A stretch of 64,000 nt of DNA, from NCBI RefSeq assembly GCF_022768985.1, contig NZ_JALEKL010000015.1, positions 1 to 64,000 on the forward strand. Direction: 5' to 3'. A model generated the notes under the pieces. It saw nothing but the letters and a program-made list of their open reading frames with translations. It had not been told where the DNA came from and made no database searches. The translations under genes and the position numbers were made by a program. This DNA is from Methanosphaera sp. (GTDB taxonomy: Archaea > Methanobacteriota > Methanobacteria > Methanobacteriales > Methanobacteriaceae). Below are positions 6,345 through 33,323 of the stretch, in pieces (the first letter of the stretch is position 1; every line of letters begins with the position of its first letter).

Positions 6345-6683
6345 CTAGATAGCTTTATCTCCCACTTCACCAGTTCTAATTCTTACTACTTGTTCAACAT
6401 CTGTTACGAAGATCTTACCGTCTCCAACATGTCCTGTTTTTGCTGCTTCTACTATTGCATCAATTACACTTTGAACATTATCAGATGATACTACGATTTC
6501 AATCTTCACTTTTGGTAGTAAGTCAATTCTGTATTTTGTTCCACGGTAGCTTTCTTCAACTCCTAGCTGATTTCCTCTACCTTTTACATCTGTAATTGTA
6601 ATTCCGTTACAATTAATTTTTTCTAGTGCAGTTTTCACTGCATCTAATCTTTCGTTTCTTATTATGGCTGTGATTCGTTTCAT
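6345..6683 (-). CDS. glnK: PII nitrogen regulatory protein GlnK
   Basis: A 112-residue PII signal protein, full length. The T-loop carries YRGTKY at residues 46-51, with Tyr51 in the classical modification position, and the B-loop GHVGDGKIF is at 84-92 for ATP/ADP and 2-oxoglutarate binding. In this family GlnK senses energy and 2-oxoglutarate and blocks the AmtB channel by inserting T-loops. The gene follows amtB by 21 bases on the same strand, the usual amtB-glnK pair, and should share its NrpR-type control. ATG start with AAGGATTTGAT upstream. Confidence 0.97.
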   Translation of the reverse strand: MKRITAIIRNERLDAVKTALEKINCNGITITDVKGRGNQLGVEESYRGTKYRIDLLPKVKIEIVVSSDNVQSVIDAIVEAAKTGHVGDGKIFVTDVEQVVRIRTGEVGDKAI

Positions 6684-6704: not shown

Positions 6705-7928
6705 TTATACTCTGTAACCAAGTTCTTCATGTTCGTTAACATCAAGACCTTCGATTTCACTTTTCTCTTCAACTCTAAGTCCCATAGTTTTATCAAGTAC
6801 TTTAGCAATTACATATGTTACTATGAATGAGTATACTGCAACTGCTACAATACTTATTATTTGTATTACGAGTTGATTAGGGTTTCCATATAATAATCCT
6901 GCTGCTCCATTAATTGCTGGACATGCAAATACTCCTGTAAGTATTGCTCCCCATGTTCCTGAAAGACCGTGTACACCGAATGAATCGAGTGCATCGTCGT
7001 ATCCAAATTTTGGTTTGAGGTATGAGATTGCAAAGTAGGATACAAATGATGTTGTAAATCCTATTACTATTGATGCTGCTACATCTACAAATCCTGCTGC
7101 AGGTGTAATTGCTACAAGTCCTGCTACAGCTCCTGTGATTGCACCAAGTACTGTTGGTTTTCCTGTTTTTAATATATCGATTATCATCCAAGATATCATT
7201 GCAGCTGCTGCTGCTGTGTTTGTTGTTATGAATGCGTTTGCTGCAAGTCCATTTGCTCCGAGTGCTGATCCTCCGTTGAATCCGAACCATCCGAACCATA
7301 GGAGTGCTGCACCTATAACTGCATATCCAAGGTTATGTGGAAGTAATCTTGTATCTTTCCTTTTTCCGAGTACCAGTATTAATGCCAGTGCTGCTATACC
7401 TGAGTTAAGGTGTACTACTGCTCCTCCTGCGAAGTCTAATGCTCCGAGTTGCATGAGCCATCCTCCACCCCATACCCAGTGTGCGATTGGTATGTATACG
7501 AGTGTAATCCATATTGCTACAAAAGCAATCCATGCTTTTGCTTTCATTCTTCCTGCTACTGCTCCTGATATTAATGCAACTGTAATTGCTGCAAATGTTG
7601 CTTGGAATACTACGAATAATAGTTCTGGAATTCCTGTATCAGGATGTAACATATCTATTCCGATTCCTTGTAAGAATAGATTTACTGGTGTTCCTATTAG
7701 ACCACCTATCGTTGCCCCGAATGAGAATTGATAACCATAGCAGACCCATATGACTGCTGCGATTGCGAATCCCACTAGTGACATGAACATTGTGTTAAGT
7801 ACATTTTTCTTCTTACTCATTCCACCATAGAATAGAGCTAGTCCTGGAAGTGTCATTAGCATAACTAGTGCTGCTGATATTAAAATCCAGGCTGTATCAC
7901 CTGTGTTTAGTAACGTTTCTGCTACCAC
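6705..7928 (-). CDS. amtB: Ammonium transporter AmtB
   Basis: A 407-residue Amt/Rh-family ammonium channel of the cytoplasmic membrane, full length with about 11 hydrophobic helices. The twin histidines of the conduction pore are visible in [14 protein letters not shown] and [11 protein letters not shown], and the family signature region [10 protein letters not shown] is intact. The start is GTG at 7928, supported by AGGAGG about nine bases upstream. glnK follows at 21 bases. A TATA element at 8108-8116 and a NrpR-type palindrome at 8070-8083 lie upstream, so expression is probably repressed when nitrogen is plentiful. Confidence 0.97.
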
Positions 7929-8069: not shown

Positions 8070-8083
8070 GGAAATATACTTCC
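8070..8083. promoter_or_regulatory. NrpR-type operator of amtB
   Basis: GGAAATATACTTCC matches the GGAA-N6-TTCC operator established for the methanogen nitrogen repressor NrpR. It starts 25 bases downstream of the TATA element, so it overlaps the expected transcription start, a repressing position. A flanking 8-bp inverted repeat CGGAAGTA/TACTTCCG (8062-8069, 8077-8084) overlaps it. The same 14-mer, inverted, occurs at 31898-31911 before the glutamate synthase operon. Confidence 0.8.
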
Positions 8084-24893: not shown

Positions 24894-25745
24894 ATGATAA
24901 CAGCAAAAACAAAACTAATAGGTCTTATAGGACATCCTGTTGGACATTCATTTTCACCACAAATACATAATAATGCATACAAACAGATGGATATGAACTA
25001 TGTATATCTTGCATTTGACATTGATCCTGATGATATAGAAAATATTATAGATTCTGCTAAAGTATTAAATATTCAAGGTTTTAATGTTACAATTCCACAT
25101 AAAACAGCAGTAATACCATATCTTGACGAGATTGATGAAACAGCAAAAAAAATTGGAGCTGTAAATACAATACAATTTAGAGATGGTATAGCAAAAGGAT
25201 TTAATACAGATGGTATGGGTGCTGTAATGTCACTTCAAAACTATACAGATGTTGAAAATAAAGATGTTTTAATTATTGGTGCAGGAGGAGCAGCAAAGGC
25301 AATTGCATTTACACTTATTAATTATAATATTAAATCTATGAAAATAGCAAATAGAAGCCGTGAAAATGCTGATGTTTTAATTAATAACTTAAAAGATCAA
25401 ACAGAATTCAGTAATATTGAATATGTATCACTAACTGATGCAAGTGATTTAATTGATGATGTTGATATTATTATAAATACAACCCCTATTGGTATGTATC
25501 CTAATGTTGATGTAGAACCTCCAATTAAGACAGATAAAATTTCATCAAAACATACTGTTATGGATATAATATACAATCCACTTAAAACAAATCTTCTAAA
25601 ACAAGCACAAGCAAATGGTGCAACAGTAATTGATGGAACACAGATGCTTATAAATCAGGCAATTGAATCATTTAAGATATTTACAGATAAAACTCCAAAG
25701 TATGAATATATGGAGAAAGTATTACTTAGAGAACTTCAAGGATAA
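24894..25745 (+). CDS. aroE: Shikimate dehydrogenase
   Basis: A 283-residue AroE reducing 3-dehydroshikimate with NADPH in aromatic amino acid synthesis. Seen: shikimate-binding HSFSPQIHN (~17-25), the catalytic lysine in NVTIPHK (~63-69), NTDGMG (~104), the nucleotide loop GAGGAAKAI and NTTPIGMYP. A GGAGG site lies about 12 bases upstream. Monocistronic, rightward, divergent from hisS. Confidence 0.96.
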   Translation: MITAKTKLIGLIGHPVGHSFSPQIHNNAYKQMDMNYVYLAFDIDPDDIENIIDSAKVLNIQGFNVTIPHKTAVIPYLDEIDETAKKIGAVNTIQFRDGIAKGFNTDGMGAVMSLQNYTDVENKDVLIIGAGGAAKAIAFTLINYNIKSMKIANRSRENADVLINNLKDQTEFSNIEYVSLTDASDLIDDVDIIINTTPIGMYPNVDVEPPIKTDKISSKHTVMDIIYNPLKTNLLKQAQANGATVIDGTQMLINQAIESFKIFTDKTPKYEYMEKVLLRELQG

Positions 25746-25862
25746 GAAAAATTAGTATTTATTTATTCTCTTTTCTTTTTTTTTAATCTTTTTTTTAATA
25801 ATTTTAATTTAAATAATTTTTTTTTAGTTTTAGAAAAAGTAGTTGTTATATCTAAAAAAAAT

Positions 25863-25903
25863 ATAGGGGAAGGATTGTTTTTTCTGGAAGATTTTTCCCC
25901 TAT
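25863..25903 (-). terminator. Hairpin terminator downstream of npdG
   Basis: Perfect 9-bp inverted repeat ATAGGGGAA (25863-25871) / TTCCCCTAT (25895-25903), followed on the minus strand by ATTTTTTT. It lies 90 bases after the npdG stop, between convergent genes. Confidence 0.6.
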
Positions 25904-25993
25904 TTATACCTATTTCCCGTTAGTTAGTATTGTATCATGTTATTTAATATGTAAACTGAGAAGTGGTAGTGAATTTATATTTATCTTTTTTAT

Positions 25994-26674
25994 TTATTCT
26001 TTTTTAATTCCTGTGATTCTTATTCCACCAAAGTGTGATTTATATTTGATGTTTAATCCAATAAGAAGAGGTGTGATTTTTTCAATCATTCTTGCTTTTT
26101 CAAGTTTACCACAGTCAATACAGTCTACACCAGGGATTTTTTCAATAAGTTCAATTGCTACTTTTTTAGCTTCATTATCATTTCCTGCTATGAGACAGTC
26201 ACAATCAATTGGTTCTGGAATGTTTTCAAGAAGTGAGTTACTTATGTTACAGAATGCTGATATTACTTTTGCATCTGTTTTTTTAAGGATTTTTGCTGTT
26301 CTTTCTGCTGCTGATCCTTCCATTAAATCTACAAATCTTGCAGGTGATCCACCAATTGCTGTTTCAAGTGGTACTGTTGCATCAAGTACAATTTTATCTC
26401 CAACAAATTCTTTTATTGATTGAAGTGTTGGTTTTTGTGCAGCTAGTGGTACTGTTAATATTAATAGATCTCCTTCTTTTGCTGCATCTTCATTACACAT
26501 TCCTACCATGTTTATGTTATCGTAGTCTTTGAGTAATTCAAGTGTTTCTTCTACTTTTGTTAATGCTTTTTCTTCTTTACGGGATCCGATAATTACTTCT
26601 TCTCCTGCGATTGCAAATCTTTTACCAAGGTTTAATCCTTGTGAACCTGTTCCACCAATAATTGCTACTTTCAT
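25994..26674 (-). CDS. npdG: F420H2:NADP+ oxidoreductase
   Basis: A 226-residue NADPH-dependent F420 reductase (Fno/NpdG). Seen: N-terminal GGTGSQGLNLGKRFA dinucleotide fold, NADP-specific SRKEEKA, TVPLAAQ, the F420-side LDATVPLE and KVISAFCNIS, and the C-terminal LIGLNIKYKSHFGG. It moves hydride between F420H2 and NADP+ to supply NADPH for biosynthesis, for example for the nearby AroE reaction. Full length. ATG at 26674 with TGAGGT about 10 bases upstream. Confidence 0.95.
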   Translation of the reverse strand: MKVAIIGGTGSQGLNLGKRFAIAGEEVIIGSRKEEKALTKVEETLELLKDYDNINMVGMCNEDAAKEGDLLILTVPLAAQKPTLQSIKEFVGDKIVLDATVPLETAIGGSPARFVDLMEGSAAERTAKILKKTDAKVISAFCNISNSLLENIPEPIDCDCLIAGNDNEAKKVAIELIEKIPGVDCIDCGKLEKARMIEKITPLLIGLNIKYKSHFGGIRITGIKKE

Positions 26675-26881
26675 TTTAATAACCTCATGTATTTTATTAA
26701 TTAAATTTTTTCTGATTTGTAATTATTAATCATTACTATTATTTATGTTTTTAAATAATATATATAATTAATTATATATTCCACTATCTCTTTTTTAATA
26801 TATTAAAAAATTTTCAAAAAAATAATAAAAATTAGTAGTTTTATTAATAATTCTACTAATTAAGATATTCCTCCATTGTAT

Positions 26882-28357
26882 CTATATTAGAGGAACACCT
26901 GTAATTTGTGATGCTTCCATACTTAAAGCAACAAGATCTTGTTTTTCAAGTTTCTGTAAATCAGTATTACCTGCTTGTTGTGTTAGCATTTCAGCTTCTT
27001 TTGTCATTGCATTAATATAATTTGCAAGATTTTGACCACTACGTACAGGGTCAAGTCTACGTCTAAGTGTTCTTTCCTGTGTTGCTATACCTTTAGGACA
27101 TCTACCATTACTACATGCTTGACATACATTACATCCAATTGCAATAAGTGCAGAAGTTGCAATATATGTAGCATCAGCACCAAGAGCAATAGCTTTTGCA
27201 ACATCAGCACCAGATCTTATACCACCTGCTGCAACAAGATTAACTTCAGATCTTAAATTAACTTCTTTAAGAGCTTCATCAGCTTTAACAATTGCCTCAA
27301 TTGTAGGAATACCAGAATGTTCTACAATAACATCAGGAGCAGCACCAGTACCACCCTGCATACCATCAATAACAATTATATCTGCTCCAGCTTTAGCTGC
27401 AATTTTAACATCCTCTTTTACACGACCTGCTGTAAATTTCACAATAATAGGAACTTTCCAGTCCGTAATATCACGAAGTTGACTAATTTTCATTGCAAGA
27501 TCCTCAGGACCTACAATATCCATATGACGTGCAGGACTTAGAGCATCTACACCTTCTGGAATATTACGTATCTTTGCAACTTCAGCAGTTACCTTGTGTG
27601 CAAGAAGATGTCCACCCATACCAGATTTTGCACCTTGTCCAATTTTTATTTCAACAGCATCAGCATTGTTAAGATATTCTGCAGACACTCCAAATCTACC
27701 AGATGCATACTGTGCAATGAGCTTATCTGCATATTTACGTTCCTCAGGTAGCATTCCACCTTCACCTGTATTTGCAATGGTATTTGCAAGTGTAGCACCA
27801 CGAGCAAATGCAAGTTTTGTTTCTTTACTTACAGCACCAAATGACATTGCACCAATCATGATAGGTGTACCTATTTCAATTGGATTTTCAGCAAAACGTG
27901 CACCTAGTGTAACTTTTGTATTACATGGTTCACGATATGAATCAATAGGAGGACGTGATACCTGTGCTGGAAGTATACTTAAATCATCAAATGTTGGAAT
28001 ATGACGTGTTGCTCCACATCCACGTACTTTATAGTTACCTGTCTGTGTTTTACGTCTAATTTCAGATATTGTTGATGCATCCCATACTCCACGTGTCTCA
28101 TCAGGCATAGATTGAATATAAATAGCATTTGTAGGACACATTCCCTCACATATTCTACATCCAACACATCTTTCCTGATGTACAGCCATTGGTTCATCAT
28201 TTATTACTTCATATACATCGTGTGGACAGTTAACATAACAGCTATAACAGTTTTTACAATTCTTCTCACGTGGCTTATCACAGAGATATCCACAACATCC
28301 AGGTCTGTTATTTTTAGATTTACATATTTCAGATCTTCTATTTACAAAAAATGCCAC
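26882..28357 (-). CDS. Glutamate synthase, FMN/Fe-S core subunit (archaeal)
   Basis: A 491-residue archaeal glutamate synthase central domain. Residues ~30-75 form a two-cluster ferredoxin domain (CKNCYSCYVNCP, CVGCRICEGMCP). Residues ~120-450 are the FMN-binding TIM barrel (IGAMSFGAVS, NTGEGGMLPEE, GQGAKSGMGGH, DGMQGGTGAAP), with the 3Fe-4S cysteines in CNVCQACSNGRCPKG. It makes glutamate from 2-oxoglutarate and channelled ammonia. The start is GTG at 28357, one base after the stop of the FrhB-like gene, with GAGGAGGG upstream. The separate glutaminase, GXGXG and electron-input subunits are encoded just upstream. Confidence 0.95.
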   Translation of the reverse strand: MAFFVNRRSEICKSKNNRPGCCGYLCDKPREKNCKNCYSCYVNCPHDVYEVINDEPMAVHQERCVGCRICEGMCPTNAIYIQSMPDETRGVWDASTISEIRRKTQTGNYKVRGCGATRHIPTFDDLSILPAQVSRPPIDSYREPCNTKVTLGARFAENPIEIGTPIMIGAMSFGAVSKETKLAFARGATLANTIANTGEGGMLPEERKYADKLIAQYASGRFGVSAEYLNNADAVEIKIGQGAKSGMGGHLLAHKVTAEVAKIRNIPEGVDALSPARHMDIVGPEDLAMKISQLRDITDWKVPIIVKFTAGRVKEDVKIAAKAGADIIVIDGMQGGTGAAPDVIVEHSGIPTIEAIVKADEALKEVNLRSEVNLVAAGGIRSGADVAKAIALGADATYIATSALIAIGCNVCQACSNGRCPKGIATQERTLRRRLDPVRSGQNLANYINAMTKEAEMLTQQAGNTDLQKLEKQDLVALSMEASQITGVPLI

Positions 28358-28358
28358 C

Positions 28359-29429
28359 TTATTTTCCCTCCTCTTTAAGTTCTTTTAATGGTTTAAATAC
28401 AGGACATACTGAGTATTTTGTACCAGATGCAGCAATTACATCATTAATATCATCTGTTAGTTTTGCATATGGTTTCCATGGTTGATCTTCTTTTTTATCT
28501 ACAATAACAGTTTTATCTACATATTCATTTTCCATTAAGTACTCAAGAAGTGTTGTTATTACACCACCATCTTGTGTTGGATAATCTTTTAAGCTTTTAA
28601 GTGACATTATAGATGTATATTCACCGATAGCTTTTTTATTATCAAATTTTAATTTATCTGGTGTGTATGTTCTTGGACAGATTATAAAACATGCATGACA
28701 ATCATCAGGACATTTCTTGGTTGTAAATGGTTTTGTATCATCAATTTTAATAAGATCATATGGACACATATATTCACATCCACCACAATGTACACATGAT
28801 GCATTATCTATAACATTAGCTTTAAGATCAACAAAGTTTGATACCATATTTTCATCAAGTATATGGCTCATTTCTACATCACGCATATAAAGTACTGGTT
28901 TTGATCTTGATTCTTTTTCTTCTATATTTTCAAGATTTCTTTTCTTTTTATTTGAAGATAATCTTTTAAGAATCTTTTCTTGTTTTTCACTTAGTAGTTT
29001 TACTTCAAAATATCCATCATCTATAGCTTTTTGTATGATTTCATCAAGCTTTTCATTTCTTATTATTACTGTTGAATATCCATCAGCTGAACCTATTGAT
29101 CCTATTGAAATGTCAGCTTTTTCTGATGTTAAATCAACACAGATGTTACAGTTTTTACGTACAACATCTTGAAGATCTGATATTGGTATTTTTATTTGTG
29201 AATCATCATTTAGTGTTAAAAATCCAAATCCTTTCTCTATTCTGAATTTTTTAATATCATCATAGTCTACATCATATTGACTCATTAGGTTGCTAAGATA
29301 TGAATATGAGAAGTTTTCCATACAAAATAGTCCAATTTTATATTCTATAGGTGATTGTGTATAGTGTTGTAGTTTTGCTGCAGTTAGCATCTCACATGGA
29401 GTTCCAACAAGTGCTATTTTTTCTGTCAC
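28359..29429 (-). CDS. FrhB-family F420-binding subunit of glutamate synthase, domains in permuted order
   Basis: A 356-residue F420 hydrogenase/dehydrogenase beta-subunit homologue. In FrhB, FpoF and FdhB the order is FrhB_N then FrhB_C. Here residues ~1-145 are FrhB_C (EKIALVGTPCEML, GLFCMENFS, RKNCNICVDL, DISIGSIGS). A two-cluster ferredoxin segment (CVHCGGCEYMCP, CPDDCHACFIICP) lies at ~210-250. FrhB_N comes last (QDGGVITTLLEYLM, PWKPYAKL, GTKYSVCPVFKPLKEL). The protein is therefore circularly permuted at the normal domain junction. GTG at 29429 overlaps the preceding stop by one base (TAGTG). Family knowledge suggests it binds F420H2 and FAD; feeding electrons to the adjacent synthase is inference. 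Confidence 0.88.
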   Translation of the reverse strand: MTEKIALVGTPCEMLTAAKLQHYTQSPIEYKIGLFCMENFSYSYLSNLMSQYDVDYDDIKKFRIEKGFGFLTLNDDSQIKIPISDLQDVVRKNCNICVDLTSEKADISIGSIGSADGYSTVIIRNEKLDEIIQKAIDDGYFEVKLLSEKQEKILKRLSSNKKKRNLENIEEKESRSKPVLYMRDVEMSHILDENMVSNFVDLKANVIDNASCVHCGGCEYMCPYDLIKIDDTKPFTTKKCPDDCHACFIICPRTYTPDKLKFDNKKAIGEYTSIMSLKSLKDYPTQDGGVITTLLEYLMENEYVDKTVIVDKKEDQPWKPYAKLTDDINDVIAASGTKYSVCPVFKPLKELKEEGK

Positions 29430-30109
29430 TACTGATCAACTCCTGTTGCATCTTTTTTATTTGTTATTTTTTTGAAGTTTTTATATTGTTTATCTGTTAG
29501 TTTGAAGTCGTATTTTTCTAGTACTTCTTTTAGTTGTGCTATGTCTTCATCTGTTGTTGGACTAATTACTGCATCTTTTCCAAGACTTTTAATTTCTCCA
29601 CCTACATAGATGGTTCCACGCATTATTGATTCACCAGCATCATCTGATACATCACCTAGTACTATGAGTCTTCCTCCCATCATAAGAAGTCCTGTCATAA
29701 ATCCACTGTTTCCACCTATTATAACAGTTCCTCCTTTCATGATTTCTCCTGTACGTGATCCTGTATCTTTACGTATTACAACTACTCCATCATAGATTCC
29801 TTGTCCTGCTCCATCACCAGATCCACCATCTACTATTAATTCACCTTCTGTCATATTATCTCCAGCAAACCATCCAGCATTATGTGTGATGTGAACTTTT
29901 GGACCATTTATCATTGTTGCAACAAAGTATCCTGCAGATCCTTGTATTTCTAGTTCTACATCGCTTGTTAGTCCTGCTGCAATGTTGTGTTTTGAGTGTG
30001 GATTTGTAATTATGATTTTATCATATTCATCTGCATGTTCTTTAATGGATCTTGTAATCATCTTCTCTGACATATCTTTTGCATCGATTATGTATTCTTT
30101 CATGAACAT
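29429..30109 (-). CDS. Glutamate synthase GXGXG-domain subunit
   Basis: A 226-residue right-handed beta-helix protein, the separate form of the C-terminal GXGXG domain of bacterial GltB. Repeated glycine-rich turns are visible: GGSGDGAGQG, GSRTGEIMKGG, GGNSGFMTG, GGRLIVLGD, RGTIYVGG. In glutamate synthase this domain structures the ammonia tunnel. ATG at 30109 with AGGAGAG just upstream; a second ATG six bases later is also possible. It lies 37 bases after the glutaminase gene and overlaps the FrhB-like gene by one base. Confidence 0.93.
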   Translation of the reverse strand: MFMKEYIIDAKDMSEKMITRSIKEHADEYDKIIITNPHSKHNIAAGLTSDVELEIQGSAGYFVATMINGPKVHITHNAGWFAGDNMTEGELIVDGGSGDGAGQGIYDGVVVIRKDTGSRTGEIMKGGTVIIGGNSGFMTGLLMMGGRLIVLGDVSDDAGESIMRGTIYVGGEIKSLGKDAVISPTTDEDIAQLKEVLEKYDFKLTDKQYKNFKKITNKKDATGVDQ

Positions 30110-30146
30110 CTACTCTCCTAGTTTTATCATCAATACTCATTTTTTT

Positions 30147-31064
30147 TTACATAGTATATGCTCGTACTTCACCTGGTGCAATTTGTTCTACATGGTCTGT
30201 TTCCATTACATCTTGTAGTGCCATTTCCTCTGATGCTATTGCAAATACTTCATCATTTTCTGCCATTACTCCTGGTCTTAGTCCTAGTTTATCTTTTGCT
30301 ATTCCTATACCATTTGGTGTTCCTACAAGGAGTGAAAATGGTCCGTCAAGATCTTCTACTGCATCTTCTAATGCTTCTTCGAGTTTGTATCCTTCATGGA
30401 GTTTATCTGCTATGTAGTGTACTATACATTCTGTATCATTGTTTGATTCAAAATGATGTCCTTTACGTTCTAGTGGATCTCGTATTTTCCAGTAGTTTGT
30501 TATTTGTCCATTGTGTACAACTGTTATATCAGGTGTTATGTAGCTTTGATATGGGTGTGCATGGTATCTGTCAATTGTACTTTCTGTTGCAAATCTTGTA
30601 TGTCCTATTGCATGTGTTCCTTTTATTGATTTTATATCATATCTTTCTGCTATATCTTTTACAAGTCCTACATCTTTTATCATTTCAAATGAGTGTGATC
30701 CATTTATTACACGTAGATCTTCAATTCTGTTAAGGTTTTGTATTAATGCTTCAAGAAGTTCATATTTATCAAGTTTAATTATACATCTGTATATTATGTA
30801 TCCATCGGGTGAGTTGAATGTTTGTTCATTAAATATAGGTGTAATCTGTGTTAGTGTTGTTTTTAGTTGGTTTAGTAGTCCTGGTTTGTTTTTAAGTTCT
30901 ACATTTAATTCATACTGGTTATCTGCAAGTTCAAGTCCTCCATAGATTGAAAATCCTGCAGAGTCAGGACCTCTGTGTTGTAGTGAATGAAGCATGTCAG
31001 TCATTTCTTTTCCGACATTATGTGTTTTTTTATCTTTATATAGTAGTCCTGCTATTCCACACAT
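30147..31064 (-). CDS. Glutamate synthase glutaminase subunit (class II GATase) with ACT-like insertion
   Basis: A 305-residue class II glutamine amidotransferase with the N-terminal nucleophile Cys2 in MCGIAGLL, HRGPDSAGFS, GHTRFAT and HNGQITNY, so an intact glutaminase releasing ammonia from glutamine. Between GFSIYGG and MIKDVGLV there is an extra ~70 residues (about 52-122) absent from PurF-type enzymes. It reads like an ACT domain (YELNVELKNKPGLLNQL with the PG turn), suggesting amino-acid feedback. The start overlaps the end of pdxT by 13 bases, so translation is coupled. It is the partner of the synthase core downstream. Confidence 0.9.
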   Translation of the reverse strand: MCGIAGLLYKDKKTHNVGKEMTDMLHSLQHRGPDSAGFSIYGGLELADNQYELNVELKNKPGLLNQLKTTLTQITPIFNEQTFNSPDGYIIYRCIIKLDKYELLEALIQNLNRIEDLRVINGSHSFEMIKDVGLVKDIAERYDIKSIKGTHAIGHTRFATESTIDRYHAHPYQSYITPDITVVHNGQITNYWKIRDPLERKGHHFESNNDTECIVHYIADKLHEGYKLEEALEDAVEDLDGPFSLLVGTPNGIGIAKDKLGLRPGVMAENDEVFAIASEEMALQDVMETDHVEQIAPGEVRAYTM

Positions 31065-31630
31065 TCTATTACCTCTTCTATAAATTTTCTATGTATAAGT
31101 GTATTTTCTGTTAATTCTGGATGGAATGCTATTGCCATATATTGGTCTTGTTTTACTCCTATTACTTTTCCATCGTATTTACTTAGTATTTCTACATTAT
31201 CTGCTATATTTTCTGCATATGGTGCTCTTATGAATATTCCAGGATATTTTTCTCCATCAAATTCTATTTCTGTTTCAAATGACATTCTTTGTCTTCCAAA
31301 TCCATTTCTTTTCACTTCCATATCTATAAGTCCTAGTAGGATTTGGTCTTTTTTTGTATCTTTTGATAGAAGTACAAGTCCTGCACATGTACCTAGTACA
31401 GGAATTTTAGATTCCCTTATATATTCAAGTAGTCCTGTTCTTTCAAGGTGCATTCCTATTGTGGAACTTTCTCCACCTGAAATTATTAGTCCGTCACAGT
31501 CTTTAATATCTTCAAGAACATTTACAAGCTTTGTTTTTCCTTCAATTTGCATTTCATCAAATGCTTTTTGTGTCATTATTTGGTGTTCTTCTACATCTCC
31601 TTGTAAATCTAAAATTCCCATTGTTATCAT
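31052..31630 (-). CDS. pdxT: Pyridoxal 5'-phosphate synthase glutaminase subunit
   Basis: A 192-residue class I glutamine amidotransferase. Seen: GILDLQGDVEEH, oxyanion region GGESSTIG, the nucleophile Cys in LGTCAGLVLL, and His-Glu in AIAFHPELTE. PdxT gives ammonia to PdxS, which makes PLP; pdxS is not in the window. First gene of the glutamate synthase operon, overlapping the glutaminase gene by 13 bases. The pairing makes sense if both respond to nitrogen. A second ATG at 31621 is possible. Confidence 0.94.
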   Translation of the reverse strand: MITMGILDLQGDVEEHQIMTQKAFDEMQIEGKTKLVNVLEDIKDCDGLIISGGESSTIGMHLERTGLLEYIRESKIPVLGTCAGLVLLSKDTKKDQILLGLIDMEVKRNGFGRQRMSFETEIEFDGEKYPGIFIRAPYAENIADNVEILSKYDGKVIGVKQDQYMAIAFHPELTENTLIHRKFIEEVIECVE

Positions 31631-31987
31631 TTTAATATCGTCTCACATATTTTTAAGTTTATAATTATATTTTTTTGATTGTTGATTTTTTTTTATTATA
31701 AAACCTTATCTTAATTATATATAACATTTGTATTTATTCTAAAATATAGCTAACGTTATTTAGTTAAAGTGAATATTTTTTAGTATTGTTTAGTTTTTAG
31801 TATTTTTTATTGTATATTGTTTAAAAATTAGTATTGTTTTATTTTCTTTTATTTAGAAAATCTATAACTTTGTTATATAAAAAATATTGCCGTCGAAGGA
31901 AGTATATTTCCGACTACTGTTTAAAATTAAAAAAATACTAAAAAATAATAAAAAAAATAAGATGAGGAGTTTAAAATAAAAAAAATA
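31631..31987. other. Intergenic region upstream of the pdxT-glutamate synthase operon
   Basis: 357 AT-rich bases with T-rich runs downstream of mdh. The NrpR-type operator (31898-31911) and a TATA-like stretch (TTATATAA, 31873-31880) place the operon start near 31850, with a leader of about 215 bases. No gene is seen in the leader. Confidence 0.5.
31898..31911. promoter_or_regulatory. NrpR-type operator of the pdxT-glutamate synthase operon
   Basis: GGAAGTATATTTCC fits GGAA-N6-TTCC and is the exact reverse complement of the amtB operator. It lies about 18 bases upstream of the TATA-like TTATATAA, in the BRE region, so repressor binding would exclude the basal factors. Confidence 0.75.
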
Positions 31988-32938
31988 CTATAATCCAAGT
32001 TCACGTCTTACCTCATAGGTACTCTTTTTAACAGCACGAGCTGCTTCAAGGAACTGTTTTTTCTCATCTTCTTCCATTTTAAGGGGAACAATACTTCTAA
32101 TACCTTTTCTTGATAAAATTACAGGAATACCAAGTGATACATCATATACACCTTCAACTTCACCTTCAAGGTAAGTACTTACTGTTAATATTTTACGACT
32201 ATTATTAAGAATTACTGAAATAATATTTGTAACAGCAAAAACAGGACCATACTCTGTTGCACCCTTACGACTAATAATAAAGTTACCAGCAGAACGTAGA
32301 CGTTCAACCATCTCCTCAACACTAAGAGGTAATTTATCTGCAAAGTTCTGTATTAATACCCCACCAATTGTAGTATAACTTAAAAGTGGCACCATATGAT
32401 CTCCATGTTCACCAATAACACGAGTATTAATTTCACCACTATTTATACGGAAAAACTGTGCAAGAATCTGTTTTAATCTAAGAGAATCAAGGTGATTTCC
32501 AAGACCAATAACTTTTGATTTATCAAATCCTGATGCACGAAGTGCAATTGTTGTCATTACATCTACTGGATTTGTAACAATTAATATAATAGCATCTGGT
32601 GCATACTTTGCAACAGCCTCAGAATATTCCTTCACAATCTTACCATTAGGTATAGCAAGATCAAGTCTATTCATTCCCTCTTTTCTTGGAATTCCTGATG
32701 ATATAAGAACTACCTTTGAATCTTCAAGATCTTCAAAGCTACATGATGCTTTAAGATAACAATCTATATCTTCTGCTGCAAGTGCATCATACATATCTGA
32801 TATTTCACCAGTTATTTTATCATAGCTACTTTCACGTCCAAACATTACAATTTCACTAACACTGTCTTCTTTTGCAAGGTTAAATGCTACATTTTTACCT
32901 ATTGTTCCTGATGCTCCCATTATTGTTACTTTTGACAT
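31988..32938 (-). CDS. mdh: Malate dehydrogenase (LDH/MDH family)
   Basis: A 316-residue NAD(P)-dependent 2-hydroxyacid dehydrogenase. Seen: GASGTIGKNVAF, the specificity loop GIPRKEGMNR with Arg at the position that is Gln in lactate dehydrogenases (so malate), TNPVDVMT, GLGNHLDSLR with the substrate arginine, and the catalytic His in GEHGDHMVP. It reduces oxaloacetate to malate in the incomplete reductive citrate branch. ATG at 32938 with TGGAGAT upstream. Monocistronic, leftward. Confidence 0.92.
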   Translation of the reverse strand: MSKVTIMGASGTIGKNVAFNLAKEDSVSEIVMFGRESSYDKITGEISDMYDALAAEDIDCYLKASCSFEDLEDSKVVLISSGIPRKEGMNRLDLAIPNGKIVKEYSEAVAKYAPDAIILIVTNPVDVMTTIALRASGFDKSKVIGLGNHLDSLRLKQILAQFFRINSGEINTRVIGEHGDHMVPLLSYTTIGGVLIQNFADKLPLSVEEMVERLRSAGNFIISRKGATEYGPVFAVTNIISVILNNSRKILTVSTYLEGEVEGVYDVSLGIPVILSRKGIRSIVPLKMEEDEKKQFLEAARAVKKSTYEVRRELGL

Positions 32939-33323
32939 TTAATATCTCCATTAATTTTGAATAAAAAAAATAATTTTTAATTATATTTGTACTTATTTGA
33001 TTTTTTTTAATTTATATAAACTAAATTATTTAATATCTATTTAATATTTATATATTTCATTAATTATTATATTTCTTATAAAATAGATTAATAAAACATT
33101 TAATTTATTAGAAAATTTTTAAGTTTTAGTGAATTTGTCTAAAATAATATAGAATTTATTAGTTAAATGTTTAATTTATAATATGAATCTTAATGAAATA
33201 TTAAATTATTATATTAAAATTATATAATGTATAAAACTTTCTTATAAATATTATAAAAAAATAAAAATCTTATTTAAAAGAAAAAAGAATTAAGGGTGGT
33301 TAAAAAAATTCTTTTAATTGAAT
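32939..33323. other. Intergenic region upstream of mdh
   Basis: 385 bases of A/T with many TTAATAT words. It includes a GGGTGGTTAA 3'-end element at 33294-33303 just after the HEAT-repeat gene. Nothing else supportable. Confidence 0.4.

What the first reader, a model, noticed from the sequence alone, without database searches (positions are those of the whole stretch)
28359..29429. Circularly permuted FrhB-type F420 subunit in a glutamate synthase operon
Seen: the order is FrhB_C (ALVGTPC, GLFC, CNIC, GSIGS), then two ferredoxin clusters, then FrhB_N (DGGVITTLLEYL, PWKPYAKL, GTKYSV). In FrhB, FpoF and FdhB the order is FrhB_N then FrhB_C. The cut falls exactly at the normal junction, before VGTPC. 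The gene overlaps its operon neighbours by one base on one side and is one base away on the other, next to GXGXG, glutaminase and FMN core genes. Inference: this is the F420H2 input module of an F420-dependent glutamate synthase that replaces NADPH or ferredoxin. F420-linked glutamate synthases have been proposed for methanogens; the reversed domain order is the point I would check as new.
Basis: partly seen in the sequence, partly recalled or inferred. Interest (0 to 1): 0.75.

Follow-up and report, generated by a model that had tools for sequence, protein, structure and literature searches.

The report
Permuted F420 subunit, methanogen glutamate synthase
A methanogen gene for a coenzyme-F420-handling protein carries its two halves in swapped order inside a nitrogen-controlled glutamate synthase operon; the swap is real, ancient and was noted once in a 2013 figure legend, but the same swapped module also sits beside quite different enzymes in another archaeal phylum, which I found in no paper held here.

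Summary
The 356-aa protein at 28359-29429 (-) reads FrhB_C (PF04432, residues 3-148), two 4Fe-4S clusters (206-254), FrhB_N (PF04422, 286-349): a clean circular permutation of the usual ferredoxin-FrhB_N-FrhB_C unit, cut where FrhB's domains meet. It is no artefact: the order recurs in more than 120 Methanobacteriota genomes. It is not new as stated: eLife 2013 (PMC3591093, Fig. 9 legend) says the M. marburgensis glutamate synthase subunit aligns to FrhB in swapped halves, and an F420-dependent glutamate synthase was proposed in 2011-2012. What I add: (i) Methanococcales operons with the same core genes carry an unpermuted FrhB; (ii) all permuted proteins fit one clade, which extends to a second archaeal phylum beside 2-oxoacid oxidoreductase, Mtd or molybdopterin/multihaem-cytochrome genes; (iii) permuted gene and FMN core are kept and lost together (91 good genomes: 83 both, 7 neither, 1 discordant); (iv) a perfect GGAAN6TTCC NrpR-type operator precedes the operon, identical in all 14 bases to the only other exact copy in the genome, before amt-glnK. 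Best reading: F420H2 input subunit of a nitrogen-regulated, F420H2-dependent glutamate synthase. The biochemistry is untested.

The parts
28359..29429 (-). Circularly permuted FrhB-type F420 subunit (356 aa, GTG start): FrhB_C - 2x[4Fe-4S] - FrhB_N
28986..29423 (-). FrhB_FdhB_C domain (residues 3-148), with the four cysteines of the FrhB cluster (C12, C36, C94, C97)
   Evidence: same place in the genome search; cysteines invariant
28668..28814 (-). two ferredoxin-type 4Fe-4S clusters (residues 206-254; eight invariant cysteines)
28383..28574 (-). FrhB_FdhB_N domain (residues 286-349), with QDG and GTKY motifs (FAD region of FrhB)
26882..28357 (-). glutamate synthase FMN core (PF01645) with two N-terminal 4Fe-4S clusters and a C-x5-C-x4-C motif as for the 3Fe-4S cluster of GltS (motif read by eye)
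29429..30109 (-). GXGXG subunit (PF01493) of glutamate synthase
30147..31064 (-). class II glutamine amidotransferase subunit (begins MCGIAG)
31052..31630 (-). pdxT-like glutaminase gene, first gene of the run; overlaps the amidotransferase gene by 13 bases
   Evidence: conserved at the head of the operon in related genomes; name by eye, supported by the pdxT operator reported in PMC4335013
31898..31911 (-). GGAAATATACTTCC, perfect match to the NrpR operator consensus GGAAN6TTCC, in the 357-base gap before pdxT
8070..8083 (+). the only other exact GGAAATATACTTCC in the genome, before amt (6705-7928 -) and glnK (6345-6683 -)
   Evidence: amt and glnK named by eye from the translations

Best explanation
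The operon encodes an F420H2-dependent glutamate synthase: glutamine + 2-oxoglutarate + F420H2 -> 2 glutamate + F420. The permuted subunit folds like FrhB despite its swapped halves, takes a hydride from F420H2 onto its FAD, and passes single electrons through its own 4Fe-4S cluster and two ferredoxin clusters to the clusters and FMN of the glutamate synthase core; the separate amidotransferase subunit supplies ammonia. Shown here: domain order, cluster ligands, operon, co-inheritance with the core, and the nitrogen-type operator. Inferred: the FrhB fold, FAD and F420 use, the electron path and the reaction. The permuted module most likely arose once from a ferredoxin-FrhB_N-FrhB_C ancestor and was used with several different enzymes.
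For: Domain order and all twelve cluster cysteines, QDG and GTKY invariant in 23 members. Operon amidotransferase-GXGXG-permuted-core in most Methanobacteriota. Permuted gene and core present or absent together in 146 of 152 genomes; 83/7/1 in good genomes. Genomes without full-length glutamate dehydrogenase have the pair, except one 77% complete genome. Methanococcales carry the same core genes with an unpermuted FrhB, so FrhB plus core is a repeated pairing. Perfect NrpR-type operator before the operon, shared letter for letter with amt-glnK, as reported for pdxT of M. formicicum. No GltD-like NADPH subunit found. Earlier proposals: PMC3087415, PMC3448663.
Against: No biochemical proof for this subunit in the papers held; Kaster 2011 says it 'remains to be proven'. 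One Methanobacteriaceae clade has the permuted gene away from the core. The same module serves other enzymes elsewhere, so it is not specific to glutamate synthase. The genome also has glutamate dehydrogenase. The structure model failed.
Confidence: 0.77

Rival explanations
1. The enzyme is mainly ferredoxin-dependent: reduced ferredoxin feeds the clusters directly, and the permuted subunit is an optional or reversible F420:ferredoxin adaptor.
For: The core has its own ferredoxin clusters; the same module sits beside 2-oxoacid:ferredoxin oxidoreductase genes in another phylum; the gene is unlinked from the core in one clade.
Against: Tight co-inheritance with the core and conserved FrhB FAD/F420-region residues.
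Confidence: 0.13
2. The complex makes something other than glutamate (another F420-linked amidotransfer, for example near PLP synthesis, as pdxT leads the operon).
For: pdxT is conserved at the head of the operon in many relatives; amidotransferase and core are separate proteins with diverged sequences.
Against: PF01645 match E 9e-130; NrpR-type operator shared with amt-glnK; the pair is kept where glutamate dehydrogenase is missing.
Confidence: 0.08
3. The halves are completed between chains: FrhB_C of one chain pairs with FrhB_N of another (domain-swapped dimer), so the protein is not a closed permuted fold.
For: The link between FrhB_C and the ferredoxin part is several tens of residues long and poorly conserved; no structure was obtained.
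Against: The new termini are short and lie where the two domains normally meet, which suits closure within one chain.
Confidence: 0.12
4. The order is an artefact of assembly, frameshift or gene fusion in this genome.
For: None found.
Against: Same order in one open frame in more than 120 genomes at 42-60% identity.
Confidence: 0.01

Closest known systems
M. marburgensis F420-dependent glutamate synthase subunit (MTBMA_c06440 / MTH193; ADL58239 in the eLife paper); apparently FGltS(II)-alpha of Susanti & Mukhopadhyay 2012
   Same: Same enzyme proposal; the swapped alignment to FrhB is stated in PMC3591093, Fig. 9 legend. Full-length permuted orthologs occur in all families of the phylum sampled.
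   Different: Only the species: this is the Methanosphaera-like ortholog. I did not align the M. marburgensis protein itself by accession.
Methanococcales glutamate synthase cluster (L175, L130), most likely FGltS(I)
   Same: Amidotransferase, FMN core, GXGXG and an FrhB with two ferredoxin clusters
   Different: FrhB in the normal order, other gene order, and its FrhB branches apart from the permuted clade
FrhB of F420-reducing hydrogenase
   Same: Both domains, the four cluster cysteines, QDG(G) and GTKY
   Different: Not permuted; no ferredoxin clusters of its own
Ferredoxin-FrhB_N-FrhB_C proteins: N-half of Fsr (7npa, 7np8), 8riu_B, 8rja_E
   Same: The same three parts; best PDB matches
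   Different: Normal order; other partner enzymes
FrhB6 / FrhB10 paralogs of ANME (PMC9012536)
   Same: FrhB paralogs in clusters with pyruvate oxidoreductase (FrhB6) or glutamate synthase (FrhB10)
   Different: Domain order not stated in the passages read; the ANME and Methanosarcinales relatives seen here are unpermuted

Membership tests
FrhB/FdhB family (F420 hydrogenase/dehydrogenase beta subunit) | PF04422 and PF04432 both present above cut-off | tested here: met
   67.2 and 149.1 bits against cut-offs 22 and 23.3
FrhB/FdhB family (F420 hydrogenase/dehydrogenase beta subunit) | order FrhB_N then FrhB_C | tested here: not met
   C before N: a permuted relative, not a standard member
FrhB/FdhB family (F420 hydrogenase/dehydrogenase beta subunit) | four cysteines of the FrhB 4Fe-4S cluster and the FAD-region motifs | tested here: met
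   C12, C36, C94, C97, QDG and GTKY invariant in 23 members; roles from PMC3591093
FrhB/FdhB family (F420 hydrogenase/dehydrogenase beta subunit) | FAD and F420 binding | not testable with these tools
   needs protein
F420-dependent glutamate synthase FGltS(II) | FrhB-type subunit encoded with glutamate synthase core, GXGXG and amidotransferase | tested here: met
F420-dependent glutamate synthase FGltS(II) | swapped halves as in the M. marburgensis protein | tested here: met
   here against the statement in PMC3591093
F420-dependent glutamate synthase FGltS(II) | glutamate synthase activity with F420H2 | not testable with these tools
   needs an assay; unproven in the literature held
NADPH glutamate synthase (GltD-type beta subunit) | GltD-like partner (PF14691) | tested here: not met
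   only partial matches below the cut-off in this genome
NrpR nitrogen regulon | GGAAN6TTCC operator in the promoter region | tested here: met
   consensus from PMC2723118
NrpR nitrogen regulon | nrpR gene present and binding shown | not tested
   nrpR was not searched for

The most novel reading that the evidence does not exclude
The circular permutation arose once and created a portable F420 module of its own, since used with at least four kinds of system: glutamate synthase (Methanobacteria), and in a second archaeal phylum a 2-oxoacid oxidoreductase, an Mtd-linked system and a nap-like molybdopterin/multihaem-cytochrome system. None of the last three is described with a permuted FrhB in the papers I could search.
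Probability: 0.6. Interest if true: 0.6.

Novelty: new member of a known kind. Interest (0 to 1): 0.42.

Why it matters
Natural circular permutations inside a multi-cofactor redox protein that then spread to several partner enzymes are uncommon (own knowledge). This one lets one test whether FrhB's two halves form a closed flavin/F420 unit whose termini can be moved. It also shows that Methanobacteria and Methanococcales feed the same glutamate synthase core through F420 subunits that are not sisters, points to possible F420-linked 2-oxoacid oxidoreductases, and adds regulatory and co-inheritance evidence to an enzyme proposed since 2011 without proof.

Tried and rejected
AlphaFold of the single sequence gave pLDDT 34 and was discarded. 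A viral-contig scan found no permuted relative. No Rfam element in 25500-33000. Fusion or assembly artefact: rejected by conservation. Two origins of the permutation: the free quick tree set one permuted row (L172) apart on a long branch, but holding all 53 together gave a better likelihood. The test of the glutamate synthase permuted rows plus the Methanococcales form as one clade did not finish. Literature searches for earlier notice of the permutation gave only the eLife legend; a search for the second-phylum association gave nothing.

Full report
OBSERVATION. The protein at 28359-29429 (-) has PF04432 at residues 3-148, ferredoxin-type clusters at 206-254 and PF04422 at 286-349. Compared with the FrhB of the same genome the two halves align in swapped order, and the cut falls in the short linker between the FrhB domains. 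Solved ferredoxin-FrhB proteins give the same picture. Since those solved relatives run ferredoxin, FrhB_N, FrhB_C, the window protein is a circular permutation of that whole unit.

IS IT REAL AND HOW OLD. A search of 152 Methanobacteriota genomes returned single, full-length matches in the same order in more than 120 of them, in every family sampled. The 23 aligned members have 42-59% identity to the window protein and keep all twelve cluster cysteines plus QDG and GTKY. The permutation therefore dates to the root of the group or earlier.

PRIOR ART. The cryo-EM paper on Frh (PMC3591093) says in its Fig. [quoted passage not shown] Kaster et al. [quoted passage not shown] Susanti and Mukhopadhyay 2012 (PMC3448663) distinguished FGltS(I) and FGltS(II) and cite the M. 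marburgensis homolog for the second; their main text does not mention a permutation. So both the enzyme proposal and the permutation were in print.

WHAT IT WORKS LIKE. In most Methanobacteriota the order is amidotransferase, GXGXG, permuted subunit, FMN core, often with pdxT in front. One Methanobacteriaceae clade has the permuted gene elsewhere, often next to an M42 peptidase gene, with the core at another place in the genome. Presence of the two genes agrees in 146 of 152 genomes. Among 91 genomes at least 90% complete and at most 5% contaminated, 83 have both, 7 neither and 1 (G011) only the core (tallied by hand, Fisher p 1e-9; the genomes are related, so p overstates, but the losses fall in several genera). 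In G019 both matches carry internal stops. In the 41-genome sample for glutamate dehydrogenase, every Methanobacteriota genome without a full-length copy has the pair, except G117, which is 77% complete. No NADPH-type GltD subunit is evident.

REGULATION. The 357-base gap before pdxT holds GGAAATATACTTCC, a perfect GGAAN6TTCC. The only other exact copy of this 14-mer in the genome lies before amt-glnK. GGAAN6TTCC is the documented NrpR operator (PMC2723118). In M. [quoted passage not shown] the pdxT entry makes sense if pdxT heads this operon there too (inference). Similar sites stand just before pdxT in L038 and L045, and near the start of the relocated permuted gene in L043; other relatives have none. 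This ties the operon to nitrogen assimilation by evidence independent of homology.

BEYOND GLUTAMATE SYNTHASE. Methanocaldococcus and Methanothermococcus carry amidotransferase, core, GXGXG and an UNPERMUTED FrhB in one cluster. No full-length permuted match at E 1e-60 or better was found in the 36 genomes of that phylum, and only split matches, in normal order, in 200 genomes of another archaeal phylum. A phylum of 23 genomes around G152 has many permuted copies: beside 2-oxoacid oxidoreductase genes (L160-L163, L165-L168, L170), beside Mtd (L158, L159, L164, L169, L173), and in a molybdopterin oxidoreductase/NapD/multihaem cytochrome cluster (L171, L176). One genome (G424) of a third phylum has it beside 2-oxoacid oxidoreductase genes. 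It was one of 393 genomes, at a strict cut-off and with few candidates scored per genome, so transfer, contamination and under-sampling all stay open. From its gene content the G152 phylum may be Hadarchaeota; I could not name it.

ORIGIN. A tree of sequences rearranged to one order put 52 of 53 permuted rows in one clade (SH-aLRT 84). Holding all 53 together raised the log-likelihood by 33 (AU p 0.95), so a single origin is favoured, not proven. The Methanococcales glutamate synthase subunit branches elsewhere, so the same core enzyme apparently uses two separately recruited F420 subunits. An unpermuted FrhB beside a 2-oxoacid oxidoreductase gamma gene also exists (L149), in line with FrhB6 of ANME-1 (PMC9012536).

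VERDICT. A real, conserved, already noted permutation in a proposed enzyme. The new parts are the wider permuted lineage, the unpermuted counterpart in Methanococcales, the co-inheritance and the operator.

LIMITS. No assay and no usable structure model; FAD and F420 binding rest on conserved residues only. Literature was limited to the open library held here.

Noticed in passing
L160-L163, L165-L168, L170 (phylum of G152); L174 (G424): Permuted FrhB encoded directly before 2-oxoacid oxidoreductase gamma/alpha/beta genes: a possible F420-linked 2-oxoacid oxidoreductase.
   Followed up: partly
L158, L159, L164, L169, L173: Permuted FrhB directly before an Mtd gene (PF01993, F420-dependent methylene-H4MPT dehydrogenase); several of these copies have a C-terminal extension of about 80 residues.
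   Followed up: partly
L171, L176: Permuted FrhB inside a cluster of molybdopterin oxidoreductase, NapD-like, ferredoxin and multihaem cytochrome genes: a possible F420H2-fed nitrate or nitrite reductase.
   Followed up: partly
L163: 3099-4223 and 5509-6630: An unpermuted and a permuted FrhB gene about 1.3 kb apart, with an arginase-family gene between them.
   Followed up: no
L039, L042-L044, L047-L051: One Methanobacteriaceae clade has the permuted gene away from the glutamate synthase genes, usually next to an M42 peptidase gene; reason unknown.
   Followed up: partly
window 31052-31630 and 31898-31911: pdxT heads the glutamate synthase operon and carries the nitrogen operator; why a PLP-synthesis glutaminase is tied to nitrogen control is unexplained.
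   Followed up: partly
Genomes G116, G022, G041, G046, G103, G112; G019: Good-quality Methanobacteriaceae genomes that lack both the permuted subunit and its core; in G019 both matches carry internal stops, as if being lost together.
   Followed up: partly
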